A stretch of DNA of 64,000 nucleotides. Source: Bacteroidales bacterium (GTDB lineage: Bacteria; Bacteroidota; Bacteroidia; Bacteroidales; GCA-2748055). The DNA lies in the NCBI GenBank assembly GCA_029210725.1, contig JARGFM010000017.1, positions 1-64,000 on the forward strand. The letters are read 5' to 3'. Positions 25,333 to 58,256 of this stretch are shown in pieces. The stretch's first letter is position 1. Each line of letters begins with the position of its first letter. Made by a program: the position numbers and the translations under genes. The notes beneath the pieces are model-generated. The model was given only the letters and a program-made list of their open reading frames with translations. It was not told the DNA's origin and searched no databases.

Positions 25333-25412
25333 ACCAGTCTTGATCCCGGAACCAGTCTTGATCCCGGAACCAGTCTTGATCCCGGAACCAGTCTTCTTTT
25401 CTGAGCCAGTCT
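25333..25412. repeat. 18-bp tandem repeat, 3 perfect copies plus decayed ones
   Basis: ACCAGTCTTGATCCCGGA at 25333, 25351 and 25369, followed by two partial copies (ACCAGTCTTC…, GCCAGTCTTC…). Intergenic, downstream of citrate synthase. Confidence 0.92.
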
Positions 25413-25718: not shown

Positions 25719-25781
25719 GGCCGCCGCACGCCTCACAGGCCGCCGCACGCCTCACGGGCTGCCGCACGGCTCACGGGCCGC
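25719..25781. repeat. 19-bp GC-rich tandem repeat, 3.3 copies
   Basis: Units begin at 25719, 25738 and 25757 (GGCCGCCGCACGCCTCACA, then two variants ending CACG), with a partial fourth. The unit is unrelated to the 18-bp array in the same spacer and is much richer in G+C than the flanks. The 19-bp period is one of the few here not divisible by 3. Confidence 0.9.
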
Positions 25782-39274: not shown

Positions 39275-40846
39275 CTAGCGCTTTAACACGAGCAGTCTCT
39301 CCGTCTGCCAATAACTTCCGGTATGCAGGTGCAGCAGGTAGATGCCGGGTTCCAGGTGATCCAGGCGCAGCTCCAGCGGGGATCCGGACCAGGGCAGGGT
39401 GTTCCGGTTCAGAATTCGGCCATCCGGAGAGTAAAACATCAGTTCCAGCGGTCCGGGGGGAAGCTGGTCCGCAGCTATCCATATGGCCTGCGTGGCCGGA
39501 TTGGGATAGATCCGGAACCGCGGCGCCTCTTTCTCAGGGATGGATGTTTCATAGGCATTCAGCTGAATATCCAGGAGGCTTGCCTGGTAGTCGTTTACCG
39601 TCACCGCCTGGAGGGTGTCGTTGAAGTAACCCGGAGAGGAGACAAGCAGGTCGTAAACCCCTTCCTTAATCAGCCTGTAGAAATCACCGTGAGTTTCGGA
39701 GCTGTACACCACCGAGCTGGTGGTGTCGTGGTCCTCCACCGAGATTCGTGCCTTCAGCGGGGCGCCGCTCTCCCGGTCGCTCACCTTCCCCCGGATCCCG
39801 TAGAGGCACTGCGAAATATAGTTGATCAGGGAGCGCCGGTTAATGTCCCAGTGATGTTCCAGTTCTGCCGAGGGCAGAAGAAATTCGTCCGACAGTTCCA
39901 GGGTCACCTCCCTGCCTCCCAGGTAGTAATTCACATAGTCCTGACGGGTCCCCAAGGCCACGTACCAGTCCCAGCCGTTGGTGATTCCGTCGTCGGGCCA
40001 TCCCCACATATAGTCGGGATCCACCGCCATGGCCTCATCAGCATATTCCCTGGAGATAAAACGGTACCAGTTATCATCCACATGCCGTACCGGAGTGTGG
40101 TCCCAGGGATAGTTCACCACTTCGGCTCCGTTGTGCAGGTTGGCCGACAGGGTGAAACGGTGCTCCCTCAGGAATTCCATCATATACCTGTTCTCCAGGG
40201 CCCGGCCTGTGGTATCATCGGCTTCGCCACTCCCCGGGTTCGGGAAGTCCCGGTTCAGATCGGTTCCGTCCCTGGCGTTGCGCACCGAATTCCGCAGTGA
40301 AAGGTTGTTATCCTTGGAAAAGCTGCCATCGGGATTGGCCAGGGGATTGATCCATATCTGCAGTCCATCCACCAGGGTACTTATCTCGCTGTCCGTGCCA
40401 TAGCCACTGAGCAGAGTGCCGGCAAGGCGCAGCAGCAAAACGAATCCTGCCACTTCGTTGCCGTGCATGGTGGAGCTGTACAGAAAGTTGGCCTCGGCTT
40501 CATCCTCTCCCACCCGGTCGCTGATCTTCAGGGCCAGCAGCAGCCTTCCCTCCTGGGAGCGGCCAAAGGTGTCGAGCCTGCAGATTTCCGGGTAGGAGGA
40601 GGCAAAGCCCTGCATCATCTCCAGGTACTGGTCGTAGGTGGGATATTTCAGGAAGGTGCGTGCTTCGGTCAGGTCGAGGGCCATATCACTGTCGTCGAAA
40701 CGGACCGACTTGGTCCATTGTGCATGCCCGGGAGCAACTGCCAGGAGGACCGGGAGGACAAACAGGAGCAGCTTCAGGGAAGCGTTGCGGACCATCCGGC
40801 GCCCCATCATACTCCGGCGCCCCATCATACTCCGGCGTCCCATCAT
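39275..40846 (-). CDS. M14 zinc carboxypeptidase with T9SS tail
   Basis: 523 residues from the first ATG. The real start may be the ATG at 40795 (MVRNASLKLLLFVLPVLLAV… signal peptide), because the first 17 residues are DNA-repeat-derived (MMGRRS twice, then MMGRR). Peptidase M14 domain: zinc ligands in STMHGNEVAG (His, Glu) and the His of SANLHNGAEVVNYPWD, Arg in DLNRDFPN, catalytic Glu in VTLELSDEF. Then a carboxypeptidase-regulatory/CnaB-like domain (GIRGKVSDRESGAPLKARIS) and a type IX secretion sorting domain (FRIYPNPATQAIWI … GIYLLHLHTGSYWQTERLLV). It is exported and probably surface-bound or released. The first ATG overlaps the ychF stop (ATGA). Confidence 0.92.
   Translation of the reverse strand: MMGRRSMMGRRSMMGRRMVRNASLKLLLFVLPVLLAVAPGHAQWTKSVRFDDSDMALDLTEARTFLKYPTYDQYLEMMQGFASSYPEICRLDTFGRSQEGRLLLALKISDRVGEDEAEANFLYSSTMHGNEVAGFVLLLRLAGTLLSGYGTDSEISTLVDGLQIWINPLANPDGSFSKDNNLSLRNSVRNARDGTDLNRDFPNPGSGEADDTTGRALENRYMMEFLREHRFTLSANLHNGAEVVNYPWDHTPVRHVDDNWYRFISREYADEAMAVDPDYMWGWPDDGITNGWDWYVALGTRQDYVNYYLGGREVTLELSDEFLLPSAELEHHWDINRRSLINYISQCLYGIRGKVSDRESGAPLKARISVEDHDTTSSVVYSSETHGDFYRLIKEGVYDLLVSSPGYFNDTLQAVTVNDYQASLLDIQLNAYETSIPEKEAPRFRIYPNPATQAIWIAADQLPPGPLELMFYSPDGRILNRNTLPWSGSPLELRLDHLEPGIYLLHLHTGSYWQTERLLVLKR
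40796..40846. repeat. 18-bp tandem repeat at the carboxypeptidase start, 2.8 copies
   Basis: Plus-strand unit ACTCCGGCGCCCCATCAT at 40811 and 40829 with a partial copy before. Read on the minus strand each unit starts with ATGATG, so the array supplies a series of in-frame start codons between the ychF stop and the signal peptide. Confidence 0.88.
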
Positions 40847-41940
40847 ACATTAAATCTGATGTGAAGAATATCGGCCTCCTCCACCACGTAGTTTTTTCCT
40901 TCCACCGATAATTTGCCCTTATCCTTGCAGGCCTGCTCCGAGCCCAGGGTAATAAAATCTTCATACTTCATCACCTCGGCACGGATAAACCCGCGCTGCA
41001 GGTCCGAGTGTATGGCCCCGGCCGCTTCGGGGGCCAGGGCACCCTTCCGGATGGTCCAGGCCCGGATCTCTTTGGGGCCCACGGTGAAAAAGGAAATCAG
41101 GTTCAGCATGGAGTAGGCCGATCGTATGAGCTTGCTCACCCCCGGCTCTTCCAGTCCGGCATCGGCCAGGAAGGCTTTGCGGTCTTCCTCGTCCTCCAGT
41201 TCGGCAATCTCCGATTCCAGACGGGCCGCCAGCACCAGGATCTCGGCCTTTTCGCCGGCCAGGTATTCCTTTACCTGATCCACATAGGCGTTGCCTGCGA
41301 TGGCCGCCTCATCTTCCACGTTGCACACATACATAAGCGGCTTGCTGGTCAGCAGAAAGAGGTCTTCAATATATTTACGGTCCGTTTCGCTCACTTCCAG
41401 GGTACGGGCATTCTGAAAATCTTCCAGGTGGTCCTTATATCTTGCCAGCACTTCGAGCCCTCTTTGGGCATCCTTATCCCCTGTTTTGGCAATCCTGGCC
41501 AGCCGTTCCATCTTTTTTTCCACCGACTCGAGGTCCTTGACCTGCAGTTCCAGGTTGATGGTCTCCATGTCGCGGACCGGGTTCACCGATCCGTCGATAT
41601 GGGGCAGCTGTTCGTCATCAAAACACCGGATCACCTGAATCAGGGCATCGGTATTCCGGATATCGGAGAGAAACTTGTTGCCCACACCTTCTCCCTGGTT
41701 GGCCCCCCTGGCGAGTCCGGGGATATCCACAATTTCGACAGAGGCCGGGATGATCTTTTCAGTGGGCTGGAAATTCTCCAGCTTATAGAGCCTGGGTTCT
41801 GGCACATTCACCATTCCAACATTGGACTTACTGGAGGTAAAGGCAAAGCTGGAAGTTTCCACCCTGGTATTGGACATACAGTTGAAGAGTGTGGATTTGC
41901 CCACGTTGGCTACCCCGATAATCCCGCATTTTAGTGCCAT
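40843..41940 (-). CDS. ychF: Ribosome-binding ATPase YchF
   Basis: 365 residues, Obg-like P-loop protein that prefers ATP. GVANVGKSTLFN (P-loop), DIPGLARGANQGEGVGNKFL (G3 region), the NVED specificity motif in place of NKxD, and the C-terminal TGS-like domain ending ADILHIRFNV. It associates with ribosomes and with stress responses. It is divergent from transketolase, with a -7 element at 41958-41965, and its TGA overlaps the carboxypeptidase ATG. Confidence 0.97.
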   Translation of the reverse strand: MALKCGIIGVANVGKSTLFNCMSNTRVETSSFAFTSSKSNVGMVNVPEPRLYKLENFQPTEKIIPASVEIVDIPGLARGANQGEGVGNKFLSDIRNTDALIQVIRCFDDEQLPHIDGSVNPVRDMETINLELQVKDLESVEKKMERLARIAKTGDKDAQRGLEVLARYKDHLEDFQNARTLEVSETDRKYIEDLFLLTSKPLMYVCNVEDEAAIAGNAYVDQVKEYLAGEKAEILVLAARLESEIAELEDEEDRKAFLADAGLEEPGVSKLIRSAYSMLNLISFFTVGPKEIRAWTIRKGALAPEAAGAIHSDLQRGFIRAEVMKYEDFITLGSEQACKDKGKLSVEGKNYVVEEADILHIRFNV

Positions 41941-41957
41941 CTGTGTTAAATTTGGCT

Positions 41958-41965
41958 CAAAATTA
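41958..41965 (-). promoter_or_regulatory. ychF promoter -7 element
   Basis: Minus-strand TAATTTTG matches TAnnTTTG, 18 bases upstream of the ychF ATG, implying a leader of about 10 bases. The -33 match is poor. Confidence 0.5.
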
Positions 41966-42011
41966 GCAAAAAAGAACCACCACCCGGTGACCTGTTTTAA
42001 ATATTAATGGG

Positions 42012-42019
42012 TAATTTTG
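42012..42019 (+). promoter_or_regulatory. Transketolase promoter -7 element
   Basis: TAATTTTG matches TAnnTTTG, 25 bases before the ATG at 42045. It faces away from the ychF element 46 bp to the left, so the 104-bp spacer is a compact divergent promoter pair. Confidence 0.55.
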
Positions 42020-42044
42020 GGCTTCGTTCTAAAACAGCAAATTC

Positions 42045-44084
42045 ATGAACCTTCAGATTCACAGCCTCGCTTCAGACAACATTCGTATCCTTGCCGCTGC
42101 CATGGTGGAAAAGGCCAGATCGGGACACCCGGGTGGAGCCATGGGCGGTGCCGATTTTGCAGAGATGCTTTATTCCAGGTTTCTCCGCTTTGATCCGGAC
42201 GATGGAGCCTGGCCGCTGAGAGACCGTTTTTTTCTGGATCCCGGGCATATGTCGCCCATGCTCTACGGAATACTGGCGCTCACCGGGCATTATTCCCCGG
42301 AGGAGCTTCGCTCTTTCCGGCAGTGGGGAAGTCCCACCCCCGGACACCCCGAAGTGGATGTGAAGCGTGGGGTGGAGAATACCTCCGGACCGCTTGGACA
42401 GGGCCATACCATGGCTGTGGGAGCGGCCATTGCGGAGCGCTTCCTGGCTGCCCGCTTCGGGGAGTGGCTTTCCCACAAGACCTATACTTTTATTTCCGAC
42501 GGGGGCGTTCAGGAAGAGATTTCACAGGGAGCCGGCCGTATAGCGGGTTTCCTGGGCCTGTCGAACCTGATCATGTTTTATGACTCCAACGATATCCAGC
42601 TCTCCACCCGGACCGAAGAGGTTTCGGCCGAAGATACTGCCGCCAAGTACAGGGCCTGGAACTGGAGCGTTTGCCTGATCGACGGCAACGATCCTTTCCA
42701 AATCTTCCAGGCACTGGAGTCGGCACTGTCCGAAAAGGAGCGTCCCAGCCTGATCATAGGAAAAACCATTATGGGCAAAGGGGCCCTGGATGAGAACGGA
42801 AACAGCTTCGAAGGAAAGACCTCCATGCACGGGATGCCATTGTCGGAAGCCGGGGCCTCTTTTGAGAAGACCATCGCCAACCTGGGAGGGGATCCGGAGA
42901 ATCCTTTCGTGATTTTCGGGGAGGTCCGGGAGGCCTACCATGCGATCCTGGAAGAGAAACGGAAGGAAGCGGCCAAAAAAAGGGCGGAACAGGCGGCCTG
43001 GGAAAAAGCCAACCCGGCACTGGCTGAGAAGTACAGGAGCTTCCTGGAGGGAAAGCTCCCGGAGATTGACTTCGCGGCCATCGGGCAGAAGGCCGGGGCA
43101 CCTACCCGTGGAGCCTCCGGAGCGGTGCTGGCCAGCCTGGCCGGAAAGATCGGGAATATGATCGTGGCTTCGGCCGATCTTTCGAACAGTGACAAAACAG
43201 ATGGGTATCTGAAAAACACCAGCGCTTTTAAACGTGGCGATTTCAGCGGCTCCTTCCTCCAGGCAGGAGTCAGTGAGCTGACCATGGCCGCCATGGCCAA
43301 CGGAATGGCCCTGCATGGCGGAGTGATCCCGGTGATCGGGACCTTCTTTGTGTTCAGCGATTATATGAAGCCCGCGGTCCGGATGGCTGCCCTGATGCAG
43401 CTGCCTGTAAAATATGTGTGGACCCACGATGCCTTCCGGGTCGGAGAAGATGGTCCCACCCATCAGCCCGTGGAGCAGGAGGCACAGATCCGCCTGCTGG
43501 AACATTTGAGAAATCACCATGGCAGGCGCTCCATGCTGGTCCTGCGTCCGGCCGATGCCCTGGAGACCTCGGTAGCCTGGAAAATGGCGCTGGAAAACGA
43601 GGCTTCCCCCACGGCACTGATCCTCTCCAGGCAGGGAGTAAAGGATATTCCGGCCCTGCCCGGCTCTGACAGGTACACCGATGCGCTGCAGGCGGAGAAG
43701 GGAGCTTATGTGGTGCTGGACTGTAAGGGGACTCCCGATGTGGTGATGGTGGCCTCTGGTTCGGAGGTATCCACCCTTCTGGCGGGAGCAGAACTGCTGA
43801 TAAAGGATAAAGGACTGAATATAAAAGTGTTATCCCTTATTTCTGAGGGACTCTTCCGCGACCAGCCAGAGGAGTACCAGGAAGAAGTGATTCCCTCAGG
43901 AGTTCCGGTGTTTGGACTTACGGCCGGCCTGCCTGTGACCCTTCAGGGACTGGTGGGAGAACATGGAATCGTGTTCGGACTGGAAAGTTTCGGTTATTCC
44001 GCACCCTACCAGGTGCTGGACGAAAAGCTGGGCTTTACCGGTGAGAATGTTTGTAAACAGGTGAGTGCCCTGCTGGGGGTGTAA
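42045..44084 (+). CDS. tkt: Transketolase
   Basis: 679 residues in the usual three-domain form. The thiamine-diphosphate motif is in the N-terminal half (FISDGGVQEEISQGAG … FYDSNDIQ), with KARSGHPGGAMGGADFAEML at the start and SGPLGQGHTMAVGAA in the cofactor region. The pyrimidine domain has WTHDAFRVGEDGPTHQPVEQ. It moves two-carbon units in the pentose phosphate pathway. Its stop codon lies in a 15-bp tandem duplication. Confidence 0.97.
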   Translation: MNLQIHSLASDNIRILAAAMVEKARSGHPGGAMGGADFAEMLYSRFLRFDPDDGAWPLRDRFFLDPGHMSPMLYGILALTGHYSPEELRSFRQWGSPTPGHPEVDVKRGVENTSGPLGQGHTMAVGAAIAERFLAARFGEWLSHKTYTFISDGGVQEEISQGAGRIAGFLGLSNLIMFYDSNDIQLSTRTEEVSAEDTAAKYRAWNWSVCLIDGNDPFQIFQALESALSEKERPSLIIGKTIMGKGALDENGNSFEGKTSMHGMPLSEAGASFEKTIANLGGDPENPFVIFGEVREAYHAILEEKRKEAAKKRAEQAAWEKANPALAEKYRSFLEGKLPEIDFAAIGQKAGAPTRGASGAVLASLAGKIGNMIVASADLSNSDKTDGYLKNTSAFKRGDFSGSFLQAGVSELTMAAMANGMALHGGVIPVIGTFFVFSDYMKPAVRMAALMQLPVKYVWTHDAFRVGEDGPTHQPVEQEAQIRLLEHLRNHHGRRSMLVLRPADALETSVAWKMALENEASPTALILSRQGVKDIPALPGSDRYTDALQAEKGAYVVLDCKGTPDVVMVASGSEVSTLLAGAELLIKDKGLNIKVLSLISEGLFRDQPEEYQEEVIPSGVPVFGLTAGLPVTLQGLVGEHGIVFGLESFGYSAPYQVLDEKLGFTGENVCKQVSALLGV

Positions 44085-44104
44085 GATGTGGGGGTGTAAG
44101 ATGC
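44075..44104. repeat. 15-bp tandem duplication over the transketolase stop
   Basis: GGGGGTGTAAGATGT (44075-44089) is followed at once by GGGGGTGTAAGATGC (44090-44104). The TAA stop of transketolase is in the first copy; the second copy lies outside the gene. Confidence 0.9.
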
Positions 44105-44127: not shown

Positions 44128-45777
44128 ATGGAAAGAAGCCGTTTACCCTGGGCAGGAATTTTAGTGCTGATGGCAGTAGGGTCGGTATCGCTGCAGGGAC
44201 AGAAGATCCCGCCGCAAAAACCCAGGCTGATCGTGGGGATCACGGTTTCGGGAATGCAGTACGACTACCTGTCGGTTTACTGGGACAAGTTTTCGGAGGG
44301 CGGATTCAAAAAAATGGCCACCACCGGAGCCAACTGCAAGAATGCCCGGTACAACTATCTGATTACCGATCCGGCAGTGGGTTTTGCGTCCATTGCAACG
44401 GGCACCCGGCCCAGCGAACATGGGATTGTATCGGATTACTGGTACCACCGCCTCTCCAATGAGGTCGTCCACAGCATCGGGGACAGCGAACAGACGACCC
44501 TGGGAGGATCCTACGGGACCGGAACCTACTCCCCCCGGGCCCTGCACAGCCGCACGCTGTCGGACCAGATCAGGGTGCAGAGCCGTTTCAAATCGCGTTC
44601 CATCGGAGTTTCCATGGACCCCGGGGCAGCGGTGCTGATGGCCGGACATGCCGCTTCGGGGGCCTACTGGCTCGATCCCGTGCGTGCCAACTGGGTCACC
44701 AGCAGTTATTACATGGACTCTCTTCCCGCCTGGGTGAATGAATTTAATGCCAGGAACTTCCGGGATCTCTATCTGGAACGGACCTGGGAGACCCTTCGTC
44801 CCATCGCCGATTACGAAGAAAGCATGCTGGATAATAATCCTTATGAAACAGGGATCCACGGGCAGATTACCTTTCCCTATGATCTGGCCCGGATCAGCTC
44901 CGACGGTAAGGGCGGAAAGGACTACAGCATACTGATGAACACCCCCTGGGGGAACACCTATACCAAGGACATGGCCATCGCGGCCATCGTTCACGAAGAG
45001 CTTGGTCGGCACGAATACACCGATTTGATCCACATCGGATTTTCGGCTACCAAATACCTGGCCAATCACTACTCCACCTGGTCGGTGGAGACACAGGATA
45101 TGTACCTGAGGCTGGATGCAGACCTGGCTCATCTGCTTCAATTTCTGGACGAGCAGCTTGGCCTGGAAAATGTCCTGATCTACCTGACCGCTGAAAATGC
45201 CCTGGCGGTGGACCCGGACTATCTGGCCGAAAGCCGCATCCCCTCTGGTTTTTTTAACTACCGGACCAGCATCTCGCTTCTGAAATCTTATCTGAATGCC
45301 ATTTATGGAAGAGGCGACTGGGTCACCTTTTATTATGCCCAGCAGATTTATCTGAATCACCAGCTGATCGAGGACTCCAACCTTTCCCTGGAGGATGTTC
45401 AGGATAAGGTGGCCCGGTTTATGGTGCAGATTAACGGGGTCTCCAATGCCCTTCAGGCTTATGTATTGCAGCAGAATTACTTCACCGACGGGGTTTTGAA
45501 CCGGATACAGAATTCCTATTACCAGAAGCGCTCCGGGGATGTGATCCTCTACCTGACCCCCGGATGGGTGGAGCACAGCAATTTGGGAGACGGGGTCTAC
45601 CAGGAGTTCAGGTATGCTCCCCACGTACCCCTGATCTTCTATGGCTGGAAGATAAACCGGGTGAGTATCCCCTCCCGGGTGTCTCCCACCGATATCGCCC
45701 CTTCCATTGCATCCTTTATGGAGATTTCCATGCCTGATAATGTGACGGGCGAGGTGATCCGGGAGTTGGTTAAGTAA
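44128..45777 (+). CDS. PafA-like protein lacking the active site
   Basis: 549 residues from the ATG at 44128, which begins the signal peptide (MERSRLPWAGILVLMAVGSV). An earlier start would run through the 15-bp repeat. The fold is the alkaline phosphatase/phosphodiesterase type seen in PafA (KPRLIVGITVSGMQYDYLSV; YWDKFSEGGFKKM; APHVPLIFYG). Key residues are changed: the first metal Asp is Ser41, the nucleophile region TxxGH reads PAVGF (Pro82, Phe86), the DxxGH metal pair reads K309-YLA-N313, and the DH of LTADH is E356-N357. It is therefore probably a non-catalytic periplasmic binding or scaffold protein. It overlaps the convergent GGGP synthase by 8 bp. Confidence 0.85.
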   Translation: MERSRLPWAGILVLMAVGSVSLQGQKIPPQKPRLIVGITVSGMQYDYLSVYWDKFSEGGFKKMATTGANCKNARYNYLITDPAVGFASIATGTRPSEHGIVSDYWYHRLSNEVVHSIGDSEQTTLGGSYGTGTYSPRALHSRTLSDQIRVQSRFKSRSIGVSMDPGAAVLMAGHAASGAYWLDPVRANWVTSSYYMDSLPAWVNEFNARNFRDLYLERTWETLRPIADYEESMLDNNPYETGIHGQITFPYDLARISSDGKGGKDYSILMNTPWGNTYTKDMAIAAIVHEELGRHEYTDLIHIGFSATKYLANHYSTWSVETQDMYLRLDADLAHLLQFLDEQLGLENVLIYLTAENALAVDPDYLAESRIPSGFFNYRTSISLLKSYLNAIYGRGDWVTFYYAQQIYLNHQLIEDSNLSLEDVQDKVARFMVQINGVSNALQAYVLQQNYFTDGVLNRIQNSYYQKRSGDVILYLTPGWVEHSNLGDGVYQEFRYAPHVPLIFYGWKINRVSIPSRVSPTDIAPSIASFMEISMPDNVTGEVIRELVK

Positions 45778-46513
45778 GGCTTTTATTGAAGCTGTCCCTG
45801 GATTCGCAGAAGACTTTGATCAGGCCGGGATCTTTCTCCACGGCATTTCCAACCACAATCATATCGGCCCCGGCCCGGAAAAGCTCCAGGGCCGTTTCCG
45901 CGGAACGGATCCCGCCACCCACCATCAGGGGAAGTGAAATTCCCTGCCTGACGGCACTGATCATAGTGGGGGCAACAGGCTGGACCGCACCGCTTCCTGC
46001 CTCCAGGTAGAGGGCTTTCAGTCCCAGCATCTCTCCGGCCATGGCAGTGGCTACGGCAATATCTGTCTTATCTCCGGGTATAGGCCGGGTGTGGCTCATA
46101 TACTCCACCGAGCTCGCCGGCCCGTTTTCTATCAGTATATATCCGGTGGGAATCACCTCAATTCCGGTTCTGCGAAGGTGGGGGGCTGCCAGCACGTGGT
46201 TTCCGATGAGGAATTCAGGATTGCGTCCGGAGATCAGAGAGAGAAACAGGATTCCGTCTGCCAGCTCCGACAACTGAAAGACATTTCCCGGAAAGATAAA
46301 GACCGGCAATCTGGTCCCCAGCTTCAAAGCGGTAATGCTTATGTCAATGGGTTTAAAGAGGATGCTTCCGCCTACCAGCAGAAGGTCGGGCGGATGCAGA
46401 TTGATCAATTCAATCAACTCCTCCAGACTCCCGTTGTCATACCCGTCGGGGTCCACCAGCAGAGCGATCCGTTTCTTGCTCCTGTCCTTAAGCTCCTGAT
46501 AGAAACCGTTCAT
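45770..46513 (-). CDS. Geranylgeranylglyceryl phosphate synthase family
   Basis: 247 residues from the ATG at 46513, which overlaps the upstream stop (ATGA); an ATG four codons earlier is possible. TIM barrel of the PcrB/GGGPS family: ALLVDPDGYD (glycerol-phosphate loop), LLLVGGSILF, PTGYILIENG, ALYLEAGSGA and phosphate-binding LMVGGGIRS / VVGNAVE. It couples a long prenyl diphosphate to sn-glycerol-1-phosphate, the first step toward archaeal-type ether lipids. Group II enzymes in Bacteroidetes are known, but the role of the product is unclear. It is the last gene of the ssb-gldE-gldD run. Confidence 0.9.
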   Translation of the reverse strand: MNGFYQELKDRSKKRIALLVDPDGYDNGSLEELIELINLHPPDLLLVGGSILFKPIDISITALKLGTRLPVFIFPGNVFQLSELADGILFLSLISGRNPEFLIGNHVLAAPHLRRTGIEVIPTGYILIENGPASSVEYMSHTRPIPGDKTDIAVATAMAGEMLGLKALYLEAGSGAVQPVAPTMISAVRQGISLPLMVGGGIRSAETALELFRAGADMIVVGNAVEKDPGLIKVFCESRDSFNKSLT

Positions 46514-47142
46514 TTCTTGACGCACCAGACCAGGGCGTAATTTTCGTGTTGAAGATACTCCATTTCAAAGCTTTCATCCCCGTTGCCATTCACCACATGG
46601 CCTTTCATAAAACCGTGCTCCTCCGGTACGAAAGGCGCGATGGTGATACCGTCCCGGAAGTTGATGTCCTGTTTGTCACAAATCTTGTACAGGGCTTCTT
46701 TGGCACACCAGTGCAGGTAGAGGTGAAACTTCGACAGCTCCGGATCCCGGGTGATGGTCTCCCGTTCGTTTATGAATTTATTGGCCACCTTGCTTATCTT
46801 TCCGGACATGTACTCCAGGTCGATCCCTACGCGCTGGTCTTTGCTGATCAGCACAGCAGTCAGGTTATTCGAGTGGGAGATGCTGATGTTGTGAGTGTTG
46901 CCTCTTACGAAGGGCTTGTTTTCGGAATTATAGAGGATCCGGGTATCTTTCCCGATCATGGTTTTCACCAGTGCACGGACGCTGAGCCATTCAATTTTCC
47001 TGCTGATGTTCCTGAAGCTGTCGAGTTTTGTTTTCTCTACTTCAACCAGGTTGACCATGCCGTAGAGTGTATCAAAATCCTCCGTTATCTCCCACACACC
47101 TAAATGGCAATCCGGTAATATTTCTGTTTTCAAAAATACTCC
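46510..47142 (-). CDS. 4'-phosphopantetheinyl transferase
   Basis: 210 residues from a GTG at 47142 (MGVFLKTEILPDCHLGVWEI), which fits Bacteroidetes relatives better than a TTG 16 codons upstream. Sfp-type family: NISISHSNNLTAVLIS, the metal site VGIDLE, and HWCAKEALYKIC. It transfers phosphopantetheine from CoA to carrier proteins, here probably ACP, since no polyketide or peptide synthase is near. Its stop overlaps the GGGP synthase ATG. Confidence 0.88.
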   Translation of the reverse strand, partial: GVFLKTEILPDCHLGVWEITEDFDTLYGMVNLVEVEKTKLDSFRNISRKIEWLSVRALVKTMIGKDTRILYNSENKPFVRGNTHNISISHSNNLTAVLISKDQRVGIDLEYMSGKISKVANKFINERETITRDPELSKFHLYLHWCAKEALYKICDKQDINFRDGITIAPFVPEEHGFMKGHVVNGNGDESFEMEYLQHENYALVWCVKK

Positions 47143-47196
47143 CACAATATCTCGGTTAGATCCCCGGAGAGGGGTGACTAAGTTAAACAAATTTGA

Positions 47197-47904
47197 TTAA
47201 TACTTCCACTCGGTGGTTTCGATCAGATGCAGGATGTCTTCTCTGAGGAATTCTATGACCGGGTTCAGAGAATCGCGGTTGGGCCTGCAGTTGAAATAGA
47301 GCGAGCCTCTCAGGAAATGATCGGTACTGTCGGTGATAAAGAACTGGACCGCGGATGCCACATCTCCCTGCAGATCGTAAATCATTCCGAACCGCCTGTG
47401 ATCCCTCTGGATGAACGGGGTTTCATCGATCCCGTATGCCTTCACCGTATGTTTGTAAACCAGTTCCCGGCTATCGGTAATCAGCTCGTTCAACCGGCCA
47501 TCCACCGCTACGTAACTCAGGTGGATCTTCCCGTTGAGCTGGGGAACGGAGACATTGATCCATCCATCTGCGGCCCTGGGGCCACTGTCTTTCTCTATCA
47601 GGGCATAGTCGGGGATCTCGAAGCGGTAGGCGTCCTGCAAGTCGTACAGATGGTAGGCTTTTTCCGGGTAACTGATCTTCAGGTACCCCATGGGTTTGGG
47701 GGTATAGGATTGCTTGCAGGAGGCGGACAGTAGCAGCAGGCAAAGGGCCAGGATCTGCCATCTCCCCGTACCCGGGTTCCTGTCTGTGAGTCCCGCACCT
47801 GTCTGTGCTCTGAGTTTCTCTGAAACTCTCCGTCTTTCCGGATCTCTCCGTCTTTCCGGATCTCTCCGTCTTTCCGGATCTCTCCGTCTATAGCTTTTAC
47901 TCAT
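47197..47904 (-). CDS. gldD: GldD gliding/T9SS-associated lipoprotein
   Basis: 235 residues from the only in-frame ATG. The GldD core follows a lipobox (LALCLLLLSASC, Cys about 66): YTPKPMGYLKISYPEKAYHL, YVAVDGRLNELITDSRELVY, and the C-terminal RGSLYFNCRPNRDSLNPVIE. GldD is an outer-membrane-associated lipoprotein needed for gliding and linked to type IX secretion in Flavobacterium (established). The roughly 45 residues before the hydrophobic signal are odd: they are coded by an 18-bp array (RRRDPE three times) plus Arg/Gly-rich filler. I see no ATG, GTG or TTG nearer the signal, so either this tail is translated or a rare start is used. Confidence 0.9.
   Translation of the reverse strand: MSKSYRRRDPERRRDPERRRDPERRRVSEKLRAQTGAGLTDRNPGTGRWQILALCLLLLSASCKQSYTPKPMGYLKISYPEKAYHLYDLQDAYRFEIPDYALIEKDSGPRAADGWINVSVPQLNGKIHLSYVAVDGRLNELITDSRELVYKHTVKAYGIDETPFIQRDHRRFGMIYDLQGDVASAVQFFITDSTDHFLRGSLYFNCRPNRDSLNPVIEFLREDILHLIETTEWKY
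47826..47889. repeat. 18-bp tandem repeat in gldD 5' end, 3.6 copies
   Basis: Plus-strand unit CTCTCCGTCTTTCCGGAT at 47826, 47844 and 47862 with a partial copy to 47889. In the gldD frame it encodes RRDPER repeats right after MSKSY. Perfect copies. Confidence 0.93.
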
Positions 47905-47915
47905 GCTTTCTCCTC

Positions 47916-47987
47916 TGCGTATTCGTTCTTCACTGCGTATTCGTTCTTCACTGCGTATTCGTTCTTCTCCGCTTATTCGTTCTTCTC
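47916..47987. repeat. 18-bp tandem repeat across the gldE stop, 4 copies
   Basis: Plus-strand unit TGCGTATTCGTTCTTCAC at 47916, 47934 and 47952 (last two bases vary), and a diverged copy at 47970. The gldE stop codon (47973-47975) is inside the fourth copy; the other copies fill the spacer up to gldD. The unit is unrelated to the array 26 bp away in gldD. Confidence 0.93.
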
Positions 47988-49295
47988 CGGGTTTTTTAAA
48001 AATACCTTCACCTCTTTGATCCTTCGCTGGTCCATGGCCATCACGGTGAACTGGATCCCTTTGCAGGGCATCATATCATTCAGGCGCGGAAACCCGCCCT
48101 TTAATTCGAGCAGAAGTCCGGCCACCGTCTCCGCATCTCCCTTTACCTCGTCGAAGAGTTCGTCGTCCAGCTCCGTCACCTTATAAAAATCATTCAGCAG
48201 TGTTTTCCCGTCAAATATATAGGTGTGGGAATCGATCCTCCTGTAGAACTCTTCCGTGCCGTCCGATTCGTCCGTAATTTCACCCACCACCTCTTCCAGG
48301 ATATCCTCCATGGTGACGATCCCTTCCGTACCCCCGTATTCATCCACCACAATGGCCAGATGAATCTTTTTCTCCTGGAACTCCTTCAGGAGGTCGTTGA
48401 TCTTTTTGGTTACGGGAACAAAGAAGGGCTCGCGGATCAGCTTCTGCCAGTTGAACATGTTTTTTTGCCTGATATGGGGCAGAAGGTCCTTCACATACAG
48501 GATCCCCTTCAGGTGATCGAAGGTTTCTTCGTAAACCGGAATGCGGGAAAACCCCGATTCGATAAGCACCCGGATCAGGGTGGAGAGATCGGTTTTTAAA
48601 TCCACAGCCACCACATCGGTCCTTGGTTTCATGATCTCACTCACCTCCAGGTTGCTGAAGCGTACAATTCCCTCCAGCATCTCCTTTTCGTTTTCCACCA
48701 CATCGGTGGCCAGATCGAGCGCCTCCGACAGGTCCTCCATGGAGATATTCTGCCTCTTTTTGGCCAGCCTGCGGTTCACCAGGGTGGTCGAGCTGACCAG
48801 GATAAAGATCAGGGGTTGAAAAATTTTGTCCAGGATCATCAGCGGGCCCGCCATCCGTCTGGCGACCTTCAGGGCAAAGCGGTTGGCATAGACCTTGGGC
48901 ATGATCTCCCCGAAGAGCAGCAGCAGGAAGGTGATTATGACGACCTGGATAAAAAATCCAAGCAGGGGTGCGTGCGAAAAGTTAAAGATGGAGCTGGTGA
49001 CAAAGGAGGCAATAATTACAATGCCAACATTAATAAAATTATTGGTAATCAGTATATTAGCCAGAAGCCTCTCGGGCCTTTCCAGCAAATAAAGCACCAG
49101 GGTCTCCTTGCGGGAGGGGTGCTCCTTCAGATCAGAGATGTGCATGGGGCCCAGGCTGAAAAAGGCTACTTCCGAACCTGAAATCATGGCCGAGAAGAAA
49201 AGCAAAACAGCCACGACCACCATCGCGATGATGGCCTCCGAAGTAAGAGGCATCAGTACCGTTTGAAGCAAAATGACTGAAAAACCTGGTTCCAT
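47973..49295 (-). CDS. gldE: GldE, CBS/CorC-domain membrane protein
   Basis: 440 residues from the ATG at 49295, which shares a base with the ssb stop. Domains: DUF21/CNNM-like membrane region with about four helices (15-190; AMISGSEVAFFSLGPMHISD, FGEIMPKVYANRFALKVARR), a pair of CBS domains (about 200-320; EIMKPRTDVVAVDLKTDLST, FQEKKIHLAIVVDEYGGTEG) and a CorC/HlyC C-terminal domain (355-435). Paired with GldD in gliding Bacteroidetes. In non-gliding relatives it may be a metal-ion transporter. The last residues (NPEKNE) fall in the start of an 18-bp array. Confidence 0.92.
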   Translation of the reverse strand: MEPGFSVILLQTVLMPLTSEAIIAMVVVAVLLFFSAMISGSEVAFFSLGPMHISDLKEHPSRKETLVLYLLERPERLLANILITNNFINVGIVIIASFVTSSIFNFSHAPLLGFFIQVVIITFLLLLFGEIMPKVYANRFALKVARRMAGPLMILDKIFQPLIFILVSSTTLVNRRLAKKRQNISMEDLSEALDLATDVVENEKEMLEGIVRFSNLEVSEIMKPRTDVVAVDLKTDLSTLIRVLIESGFSRIPVYEETFDHLKGILYVKDLLPHIRQKNMFNWQKLIREPFFVPVTKKINDLLKEFQEKKIHLAIVVDEYGGTEGIVTMEDILEEVVGEITDESDGTEEFYRRIDSHTYIFDGKTLLNDFYKVTELDDELFDEVKGDAETVAGLLLELKGGFPRLNDMMPCKGIQFTVMAMDQRRIKEVKVFLKNPEKNE

Positions 49296-49810
49296 CAAAA
49301 CGGAAGATCATCCGGTCCGTTGTCCCCTTCATCAAAAGGATCATCCTCCGGCCCCGTCTCCCGGGAGGGGGAGCGCTCCTGTGCCTGTGGTTTATCCTGG
49401 GAGCTTTGAGCTCCGGAAGAAGCCGGGCTTGTTCTTTCTGTGTATCCGCCACTGCCCTGAGTATCCCCGTCTGCATCGTCCGGCTTCCGTCCCAGCAGTT
49501 GCATCTGGTCGCCCACAATTTCTGTGATGTATTTCTTGTTCCCGTCGGCATCCTCATAGGAGCGGGTTTTGATCCGTCCCTCAATATAGATCTGGGTCCC
49601 TTTCTTCACGTACTTCTCCGCCACCTGTGCCAGTCCCCGCCACAGCACGATGTTGTGCCATTCGGTGGTGGAGACACGCTCACCGGCCTTGTTTTTATAA
49701 GTCTCGCTGGTGGCCATGGGAAATTTCGTAATGGCCGTTGATTCATCCAGGTACCTTGTTTCGGGGTCCTTACCCACGTTCCCCACAAGGATTACTTTGT
49801 TTACTGACAT
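49295..49810 (-). CDS. ssb: Single-stranded DNA-binding protein
   Basis: 171 residues. N-terminal OB fold 1-110 (MSVNKVILVGNVGKDPETRY; EWHNIVLWRGLAQVAEKYVK; IYIEGRIKTRSYEDADGNKK), disordered Gly/Ser/Asp-rich linker, and the acidic tip DNGPDDLPF that docks repair and replication proteins. The first gene after the promoter at 49833-49860; its stop overlaps gldE. Confidence 0.97.
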   Translation of the reverse strand: MSVNKVILVGNVGKDPETRYLDESTAITKFPMATSETYKNKAGERVSTTEWHNIVLWRGLAQVAEKYVKKGTQIYIEGRIKTRSYEDADGNKKYITEIVGDQMQLLGRKPDDADGDTQGSGGYTERTSPASSGAQSSQDKPQAQERSPSRETGPEDDPFDEGDNGPDDLPF

Positions 49811-49860: not shown

Positions 49861-50929
49861 GGTACCTTTGAATCAGCCGGGGTACCGGATATTGATCCAG
49901 CTGTCCCACGGGTACAACGATCCAGCCTGCAGGGAGGCCGGCACCGAATGAGGGCAGTTCGACGTGGATAAAACGGGCGTGAATGGTGCGATGCGACAGC
50001 TGATGCCGGATCGTGGGGGAGAGCTGCCGGATCGTCGGGGAGAGTTGATTGATTGTGGGGGAGAGCTCCTGAATGCCTGACTCCCCTCCCCGGTAGAGCG
50101 CTTCGATTTCCTGCACCATCTCCGAATCGCTCTGCGGGGCCTGGTATTCGGCCAGTGGAAACTGGTAGAGCGACCTCCAGATACCGGAGTCGCCCCGTTT
50201 CTCCAGGATGGTTTCCCCCCGGGAGGTCATAATATAGAAATAGAACCAGCGGTTTACCGGCTTTTTTCCCCGGATCTTTACCGGAAACTGTTCCACTGTT
50301 CCGCTAAGCCGGGCATGGCAGCGGTCAGAAAGCGGACACTCCTGGCACCGGGGCGATACCGGGGTGCAGAGCAAAGCCCCGAAATCGATCATGGCCTGGT
50401 TGTGCTCCCCGGGATCGGAGCCTTCGAGCAGCTCCGTGGCCAGGGCATATATCTGCCTTTCTCCCGCGGGAGTGTTGATGGCTTCCCCGATCCCGTATAG
50501 GCGGGCAATAAGCCGGGAGACATTTCCATCGACCGCTGCCAGGGGCTCTTTGTAGCACCAGGAGGCGATGGCCGCCGCGGTATATTTCCCCACCCCCTTC
50601 AGAGCCAGTAATCCCTGGTAATCAGCCGGCATAACCCCGTTCATCTCTTCTGCCACCTGCCTGGCTGAAGCATGCATATGGCGTGCGCGGCTGTAGTAGC
50701 CCAGTCCCTGCCACAGCCTGAGCACTTCATCCTCCCGGGCCCGGGCCAGGGTTCTTACATCGGGAAACGCTTCCAGAAAATTTTTCAGGTATGGAAGTCC
50801 TTGATCCATACGGGTTTGCTGCAGTATTACCTCGGCCACCCAGGTGCGGTAAGGGTCTCTGGTCGAGCGCATGGGAAGGTCTCTGCCATTTTTTTCATAC
50901 CACCCTCGGATTTTTCCGCCAAATTTCAT
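49841..50929 (-). CDS. mutY: Adenine DNA glycosylase MutY
   Basis: 362 residues. Removes A mispaired with 8-oxoguanine. Catalytic Glu33 (EVILQQT), helix-hairpin-helix LKGVGKYTAAAIAS (110-123), catalytic Asp134 (AVDGNVSRL) and the Fe-S ligands Cys188, 195, 198 and 204 (CTPVSPRCQECPLSDRC). The C-terminal NUDIX-like 8-oxoG recognition domain (about 225-362) is split by an insertion of three heptads, LSPTINQ-LSPTIRQ-LSPTIRH (289-309), coded by a 21-bp DNA array. Divergent from hup; upstream neighbour of ssb as in many Bacteroidetes. Confidence 0.95.
   Translation of the reverse strand: MKFGGKIRGWYEKNGRDLPMRSTRDPYRTWVAEVILQQTRMDQGLPYLKNFLEAFPDVRTLARAREDEVLRLWQGLGYYSRARHMHASARQVAEEMNGVMPADYQGLLALKGVGKYTAAAIASWCYKEPLAAVDGNVSRLIARLYGIGEAINTPAGERQIYALATELLEGSDPGEHNQAMIDFGALLCTPVSPRCQECPLSDRCHARLSGTVEQFPVKIRGKKPVNRWFYFYIMTSRGETILEKRGDSGIWRSLYQFPLAEYQAPQSDSEMVQEIEALYRGGESGIQELSPTINQLSPTIRQLSPTIRHQLSHRTIHARFIHVELPSFGAGLPAGWIVVPVGQLDQYPVPRLIQRYLESVKI
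50000..50068. repeat. 21-bp in-frame tandem repeat in mutY, about 3 copies
   Basis: Plus-strand units begin near 50000, 50021 and 50042 (for example GAGCTGCCGGATCGTCGGGG followed by A). They encode LSPTI-(N/R)-(Q/H) heptads in the C-terminal domain of MutY. Copies differ at several bases. Confidence 0.85.
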
Positions 50930-57739: not shown

Positions 57740-58256
57740 CGTGGCGGCCCCCGGACAGTTTAGTTTGATCCCCGGAATGTTCATCCAGTCTCCGTACTGT
57801 TTTGTTTGGTCCCCGGACAGTTTGGTTTGATCCCCGGACAGTTTGGTTTGGTCTCCGGACAGTTTAGTTTGGTCTCCGGACAGTTTAGTTTGATCCCCTG
57901 ACTGTTTAGTTTGATCCCCTGACTGTTTAGTTTGATCCCCTGACTGTTTAGTTTGATCCCCTGACTGTTTAGTTTGGTCCCCGGCTTGTTCAGGATTTTG
58001 TGAACGGGAGGATCGCATCGGTTTCTTGGAGGGTTTAAAGAGGGTTGGGGGGGTCGTTTCCCAAAATTTGGAGCGAACAAGGCTGTTACATTTTGTGATT
58101 ATGTTGCATTTCTTATTTTCTTAACCTTTCACGGAGAGTCTTGTAACAGTCACAAATACAATGAGATATAAAACATCAGGCCTGAAATGGCAGATAAATG
58201 GGAAGTAATAGTATTAACAGGATATAACCTGGTTGTTACCACCAAAAAACCGGAAA
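57740..58256. other. 517-bp spacer, mostly a 21-bp repeat array
   Basis: Bases 57749 to about 57990 are the array. From 57990 to 58256 the sequence is ordinary AT-rich leader with no clear hairpin, tRNA or exact TAnnTTTG (nearest is TACATTTTG at 58088-58096, one base too long). Frames over the array on the minus strand are open only because the unit has no stop. Confidence 0.8.
57749..57990. repeat. 21-bp tandem repeat, about 11 copies
   Basis: The largest array of the window. Core unit CCCCGGACAGTTTAGTTTGA followed by T, with sub-variants (CCCCGGACAGTTTGGTTT…, CTCCGGACAGTTTAGTTT…, CCCCTGACTGTTTAGTTT…). Variants are grouped: the four CCCCTGACTG copies are contiguous and identical, which indicates stepwise local amplification. 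There are no spacers, so this is not CRISPR. Confidence 0.95.

What the first reader, a model, noticed from the sequence alone, without database searches (positions are those of the whole stretch)
44128..45777. PafA-like exported protein with the whole active site replaced
The alkaline phosphatase fold is recognisable, but the nucleophile Thr (Pro82), the first metal Asp (Ser41), the DxxGH pair (Lys309, Asn313) and the DH pair (Glu356-Asn357) are all changed, while the frame and signal peptide are intact. Loss of every ligand without gene decay suggests a selected non-enzymatic role, for example binding phosphorylated glycans or acting as a chaperone.
Basis: partly seen in the sequence, partly recalled or inferred. 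Interest (0 to 1): 0.6.

Follow-up and report, generated by a model that had tools for sequence, protein, structure and literature searches.

The report
Dead PafA phosphatase, conserved cap
This exported protein is built like the alkaline phosphatase PafA but has lost its catalytic centre; more than a hundred related Bacteroidales keep equally dead versions and conserve a different part of the protein, so it probably works by binding something rather than by cutting phosphate.

Summary
Confirmed and extended. Window 44128-45777 (+) encodes a 549-aa PafA-fold protein with a signal peptide (AlphaFold2 pLDDT 93; Z 55.8 to PafA 5tj3 over 508 residues). Nine of ten PafA catalytic or metal residues are changed; one ligand, His486 (window His499), is kept, so "every ligand lost" is slightly too strong. 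The change is not local: of 151 Bacteroidales homologues examined, 137 lack the site and none of these keeps both zinc sites, while 28 of 29 homologues outside the order keep all ten residues. Purifying selection is as strong as on neighbouring genes (dN/dS 0.08-0.16). No residue is lost in all inactive copies, implying at least two inactivations unless residues reverted. Seven intact orthologues fall among the inactive ones, some at the same locus. Constraint has moved: the catalytic half varies more, while the cap segment (373-485) is far more conserved than in active PafAs elsewhere, and the seven intact orthologues already share that cap. Best reading: a periplasmic non-catalytic binding or scaffold protein acting through its cap; partner unknown. 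Phosphate binding in the old pocket is unlikely, and an exclusive type IX secretion role is not supported.

The parts
44128..45777 (+). CDS of the PafA-fold pseudophosphatase, 549 aa plus stop
   Evidence: NCBIfam NF042991 531 bits (cut-off 650), PF01663 80 bits; model m863ab7f450e2
44128..44202 (+). Sec signal peptide, about residues 1-25 (hydrophobic core, cleavage near SLQG|Q); no lipobox; the protein has no T9SS C-terminal domain
   Evidence: read from the sequence; similar N-termini in relatives; Pfam finds only PF01663
44248..44250 (+). codon of Ser41, in place of PafA Asp38 (zinc ligand)
44371..44373 (+). codon of Pro82, in place of the nucleophile Thr79
44434..44436 (+). codon of Asp103, in place of Asn100
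44617..44625 (+). codons 164-166 (Asp-Pro-Gly), in place of Lys162-x-Arg164
45052..45066 (+). codons 309-313 (K...N), in place of Asp305...His309
45193..45198 (+). codons of Glu356-Asn357, in place of Asp352-His353
45622..45624 (+). codon of His499 = PafA His486, the one retained zinc ligand
   Evidence: kept in 101 of 137 inactive homologues
45244..45582 (+). cap segment, residues 373-485 (predicted beta-alpha-beta-beta-alpha-beta plus helices), where constraint has been gained; includes F376 L384 Y388 Y393 W398 Y402 L413 Q425 A429 F431 G455 W480
45770..46525 (-). context: pcrB-like gene (geranylgeranyl/heptaprenylglyceryl phosphate synthase type, named by eye), convergent, overlapping by 8 bp; conserved neighbour
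46510..49298 (-). context: 4'-phosphopantetheinyl transferase, gldD and gldE (named from the sequence by eye); neighbourhood kept in many lineages of the order

Best explanation
The gene encodes a Sec-exported, correctly folded pseudo-alkaline phosphatase of the PafA family. It is the window genome's copy of an order-wide Bacteroidales subfamily whose selected function is non-catalytic. Shown: the catalytic residues are gone here and in about 90% of the Bacteroidales homologues examined, the genes are under strong purifying selection, and constraint lies in the cap segment (373-485) instead of the pocket. Inferred: the protein sits in the periplasm and works as a binding or scaffold protein through its aromatic-rich cap, on a protein or glycan partner in cell-envelope building or export. 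The ancestor of the locus probably had this cap while still a working phosphatase (the intact orthologues share it), so catalysis was a second activity that became dispensable and was lost more than once.
For: Fold: AF2 pLDDT 93.3, pTM 0.91; 5tj3 Z 55.8, rmsd 1.9 A, 508 aligned. Catalytic loss: SPDDGKNENH instead of DTNKRDHDHH; in 137 inactive homologues a complete Zn1 set occurs 4 times, a Zn2 set 5 times, both together never. Control: 28 of 29 homologues outside the order keep all ten residues. NCBIfam's curated cut-off separates the scored intact (696-716 bits) from dead (297-610 bits) members. Selection: dN/dS 0.08-0.16, like transketolase and pcrB next door. Shift of constraint: in sets of similar overall identity (0.43 and 0.45), residues 373-443 and 444-485 have 0.84 and 0.66 bits less entropy in the dead set, whereas the catalytic segments have 0.24-0.49 bits more; confirmed by pairwise alignment of each region: cap identity 0.448 in dead, 0.264 in active ones outside the order, catalytic segments the reverse. 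Cap before loss: the seven intact orthologues share most of the 24 gained residues, 16 of them at 100%, and their cap is 0.517 identical to dead ones but 0.266 to outside PafAs. Same locus in intact and dead lineages: L184 and L198. No position is lost in all dead copies, so at least two inactivations without reversion.
Against: No partner or ligand is identified. The pocket of the window's own family keeps four invariant residues (S41, D103, D164, H499), so a small residual or new site there cannot be ruled out. The number of losses is not settled by the tree: an AU test does not reject a single clade of dead copies (p 0.385). Part of the cap signal could reflect substrate-driven diversity of caps in active PafAs outside the order. 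No coordinates were available to show that the conserved cap residues form one exposed surface rather than a core.
Confidence: 0.68

Rival explanations
1. It is a gliding or type IX secretion factor: the dead PafA works together with GldD and GldE, its conserved neighbours, in secretion or motility.
For: gldE and gldD lie beside it in about 40 of 139 loci, including deep branches such as L077, L079, L176, L164 and L167. In L164 and L167 it stays next to gldD or gldE although pcrB and the PPTase are not there.
Against: The orientation is convergent, so not one operon. T9SS is nearly universal in the order (GldL in 268 of 295 genomes), so co-occurrence has no power. Near-complete genomes without a GldL match still carry the dead gene (G082, G187, G235, G129). 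In a gut-type group it lies between an Lnb_N/5TMH gene and a secA-like gene instead.
Confidence: 0.17
2. Neo-enzyme: the pocket has been rebuilt for another reaction or another metal.
For: S41, D103, D164 and H499 are invariant in the window's family (22 rows); N100->D and K162->D recur in many lineages.
Against: Other pocket positions vary freely even inside the family (166: 92nd, 309: 82nd, 313: 89th percentile of variability). Across the order no constellation is shared, and 14 positions that are nearly invariant in active PafAs, all but one at or beside the known active-site motifs, fall below 50%. Constraint has risen elsewhere.
Confidence: 0.09
3. The old pocket is kept as a binding site for phosphate or phosphorylated glycans.
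For: The fold and the pocket's position are kept, and His486 is kept in 101 of 137 dead copies.
Against: The phosphate-contact trio is never kept and is mostly replaced by acidic residues; the two zinc sites are never complete together.
Confidence: 0.04
4. A regulator or oligomer partner of an active PafA in the same cell, as in other enzyme and pseudoenzyme pairs.
For: Some genomes carry both a dead copy and an intact PafA (G026, G087).
Against: The window's genome (98.6% complete) has no other PafA; three of its four other PF01663 hits read as sulfatase-like proteins, and the fourth is a separate PF01663 member without a PafA-level match.
Confidence: 0.02

Closest known systems
PafA alkaline phosphatase (Elizabethkingia meningoseptica, PDB 5tj3; NCBIfam NF042991)
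   Same: whole fold and length, signal peptide; 34% identity over 508 aligned residues
   Different: nine of ten catalytic or metal residues replaced; below the curated family cut-off (531 against 650 bits); cap conserved in a different way
SPAP/PhoK-type alkaline phosphatase (Sphingomonas, 3q3q/5xwk)
   Same: same fold, Z about 40
   Different: more distant (22% identity), a working enzyme
Pseudophosphatases and other pseudoenzymes (for example STYX and MK-STYX; review PMC10211241)
   Same: catalytic residues lost, fold kept, selected for a non-catalytic role
   Different: unrelated fold and organisms; no member of the PafA family was found described as a pseudoenzyme in the papers searched

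Membership tests
PafA alkaline phosphatase (equivalog) | two-zinc site (D38, T79, D352, H353 / D305, H309, H486) with Thr nucleophile | tested here: not met
   S41, P82, E356, N357, K309, N313; only H499 kept
PafA alkaline phosphatase (equivalog) | phosphate-contact residues N100, K162, R164 | tested here: not met
   D103, D164, G166
PafA alkaline phosphatase (equivalog) | NF042991 curated score of 650 bits or more | tested here: not met
   531 bits
PafA alkaline phosphatase (equivalog) | PafA three-dimensional fold | tested here: met
   Z 55.8, 1.9 A, 508 residues
PafA alkaline phosphatase (equivalog) | phosphomonoesterase activity | not testable with these tools
   needs the purified protein
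Alkaline phosphatase superfamily, Pfam PF01663 | domain score over the gathering cut-off | tested here: met
   80.2 bits against 23
T9SS cargo | C-terminal sorting domain (Por_Secre_tail or CHU_C) | tested here: not met
   Pfam finds only PF01663; the protein ends ...GEVIRELVK
Pseudoenzyme | loss of catalytic residues in an intact, selected gene with retained fold | tested here: met
Pseudoenzyme | measured absence of catalysis and a known non-catalytic role | not testable with these tools
   needs the purified protein and a mutant

The most novel reading that the evidence does not exclude
An order-wide, hitherto unnamed family of exported pseudo-alkaline phosphatases in Bacteroidales, in which a phosphatase acquired a second, cap-borne function and then lost catalysis repeatedly at the same chromosomal locus; the protein is a general envelope or export factor (near gldD/gldE in many lineages, between an Lnb_N gene and a secA-like gene in a gut-type group).
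Probability: 0.35. Interest if true: 0.75.

Novelty: new variant of a known kind. Interest (0 to 1): 0.58.

Why it matters
PafA is treated as a major phosphate-insensitive phosphatase of Bacteroidota, and its gene counts are used to infer organic-phosphorus turnover. In the window's order most homologues examined are dead, so naming them alkaline phosphatases would be wrong; the main survey removed every sequence with a change at a key residue before drawing its tree (PMC8812569), so a dead family would have been set aside. Intact and dead orthologues at one locus are a natural series for asking how an enzyme becomes a pseudoenzyme, and the conserved cap points to a testable surface for an unknown envelope function.

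Tried and rejected
Misalignment with ligands elsewhere: rejected by the outside-order control and the structure superposition. Gene decay: rejected by dN/dS and intact frames. A first structure model from 32 close sequences was poor around the active site (pLDDT 69) and was discarded for the 101-sequence one. Many independent losses from the tree: the trees suggest it but the AU test does not reject one clade; only the residue argument (at least two events without reversion) is kept. Linkage to T9SS by presence and absence: no power, GldL is nearly universal. Shared locus outside the order: none except a gldE-like gene about 4 kb away in one genome. Literature on an inactive PafA, on gldD-linked phosphatases, or on the Lnb_N-secA neighbour: nothing found in the held library. 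A first per-locus read-out of residues used the wrong strand for some loci and was redone.

Full report
What is there. The ORF at 44128-45777 (+) is intact and encodes 549 residues with a Sec-type signal peptide, no lipobox and no T9SS C-terminal domain. It matches PafA over its whole length (5tj3, E 1.9e-94), and an AlphaFold2 model from 101 family sequences (pLDDT 93.3, pTM 0.91) superposes on 5tj3 with Z 55.8 and 1.9 A over 508 residues.

The active site. Against PafA D38 T79 N100 K162 R164 D305 H309 D352 H353 H486 the window has S41 P82 D103 D164 G166 K309 N313 E356 N357 H499. The roles of these PafA residues are taken from general knowledge of the PafA structure; the mutant entry 5too (T79S, N100A, K162A, R164A) names four of them. 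An alignment artefact is excluded: of 29 homologues from outside the order, 28 show all ten residues and one lacks only H486.

How far it extends. 172 of 295 genomes of the order have a match at E 1e-40 or better, with almost no internal stops among the matches listed. In an alignment of 151 order homologues (22 of them from the window's own family), 13 keep all ten residues, one keeps nine, and 137 are inactive, most keeping one to four. The replacements differ between lineages. No inactive sequence has both zinc sites complete and none keeps the N100/K162/R164 trio. NCBIfam's PafA cut-off of 650 bits falls between the intact (696-716) and dead (297-610) members that were scored.

Selection. 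Against twelve close relatives dN/dS of the gene is 0.08-0.16, like transketolase (0.08-0.12) and pcrB (0.09-0.19), and lower than for the nearby M14 peptidase (0.19-0.36) (synonymous sites are near saturation in the more distant pairs). This is not a decaying gene.

Locus and history. In many families the gene lies in a conserved order: ychF, M14 carboxypeptidase, pafA-like, sometimes an S8 protease and an unnamed gene, then convergent pcrB, PPTase, gldD, gldE, ssb and mutY. Intact orthologues occupy the same place: L184 (ychF-M14-gene) and L198 (gene-S8-x-pcrB-PPTase-gldD-gldE). In a gut-type group the dead gene lies between an Lnb_N/5TMH gene and a secA-like gene (secA named by eye). Outside the order this neighbourhood is absent. 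Trees made without the active-site columns put seven intact orthologues inside the dead ones, but an AU test does not reject one clade of dead copies (p 0.385). Independently of the tree, no position is lost in all 137, so at least two inactivations are needed unless residues reverted.

Where the function went. In dead homologues and in active PafAs not at this locus, two sets of similar overall identity (0.43 and 0.45), the catalytic segments are more variable in the dead set (by 0.24-0.49 bits), but residues 373-443 and 444-485 are far less variable (by 0.84 and 0.66 bits; Mann-Whitney p 1e-15; 12 of 71 positions in 373-443 have newly gained conservation against 12 of 446 elsewhere, p 1.3e-5). 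Region-by-region pairwise alignment gives the same: cap identity 0.448 in dead ones and 0.264 in the active set, while the catalytic segments go the other way. The sequences are related by descent, so the p-values are descriptive. The seven intact orthologues already carry this cap (0.517 identical to the dead ones, 0.266 to the other active PafAs; F376, L384, Y388, W398, Y402, Q425, F431 and W480 at 100%). The distant gut-type members keep much of the same signature. The simplest reading is that the cap carried a second function in the common ancestor, and that this function, not catalysis, is what selection keeps.

What it does. Most likely it is a periplasmic binding or scaffold protein acting through the cap. 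The neighbours (gldD/gldE; Lnb_N/secA) hint at envelope or export work, but convergent orientation, a nearly universal T9SS (268 of 295 genomes) and dead copies in genomes without a GldL match speak against a role in T9SS alone. Binding of phosphate or phosphoglycans in the old pocket is unlikely because the phosphate-contact residues became acidic in most lineages. Regulation of an active PafA partner is unlikely in this genome, which has none.

Known or new. The fold and the enzyme family are well known, and pseudoenzymes are a known kind. A dead PafA family was not found in the papers searched, and the main survey of PafA removed all sequences with changed key residues (PMC8812569). It is therefore a new variant of a known kind: an order-wide pseudophosphatase family with a shifted site of constraint.

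Noticed in passing
40795-40848, 44074-44103, 47826-47889, 47908-47987, 50004-50067, 57749-57984, 25333-25395, 25719-25781, 1237-1321: Many tandem arrays of 15-24 bp units, several at or near gene starts, ends or spacers and some in frame (MMGRRS repeats at the start of the M14 ORF, RRRDPE repeats at the start of the gldD ORF).
   Followed up: no
L172-L179: In a gut-type group the dead pafA-like gene lies between an Lnb_N/5TMH gene and a secA-like gene on the same strand, a possible operon with the Sec motor.
   Followed up: partly
L075: A metagenome-assembled genome labelled Chitinophaga pinensis carries the Bacteroidales-type locus; the organism label is probably wrong.
   Followed up: no
window 39275-44084: In the window's genus the stretch ychF-M14 just upstream is inverted relative to related families and a transketolase gene now lies next to the pafA-like gene.
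   Followed up: no
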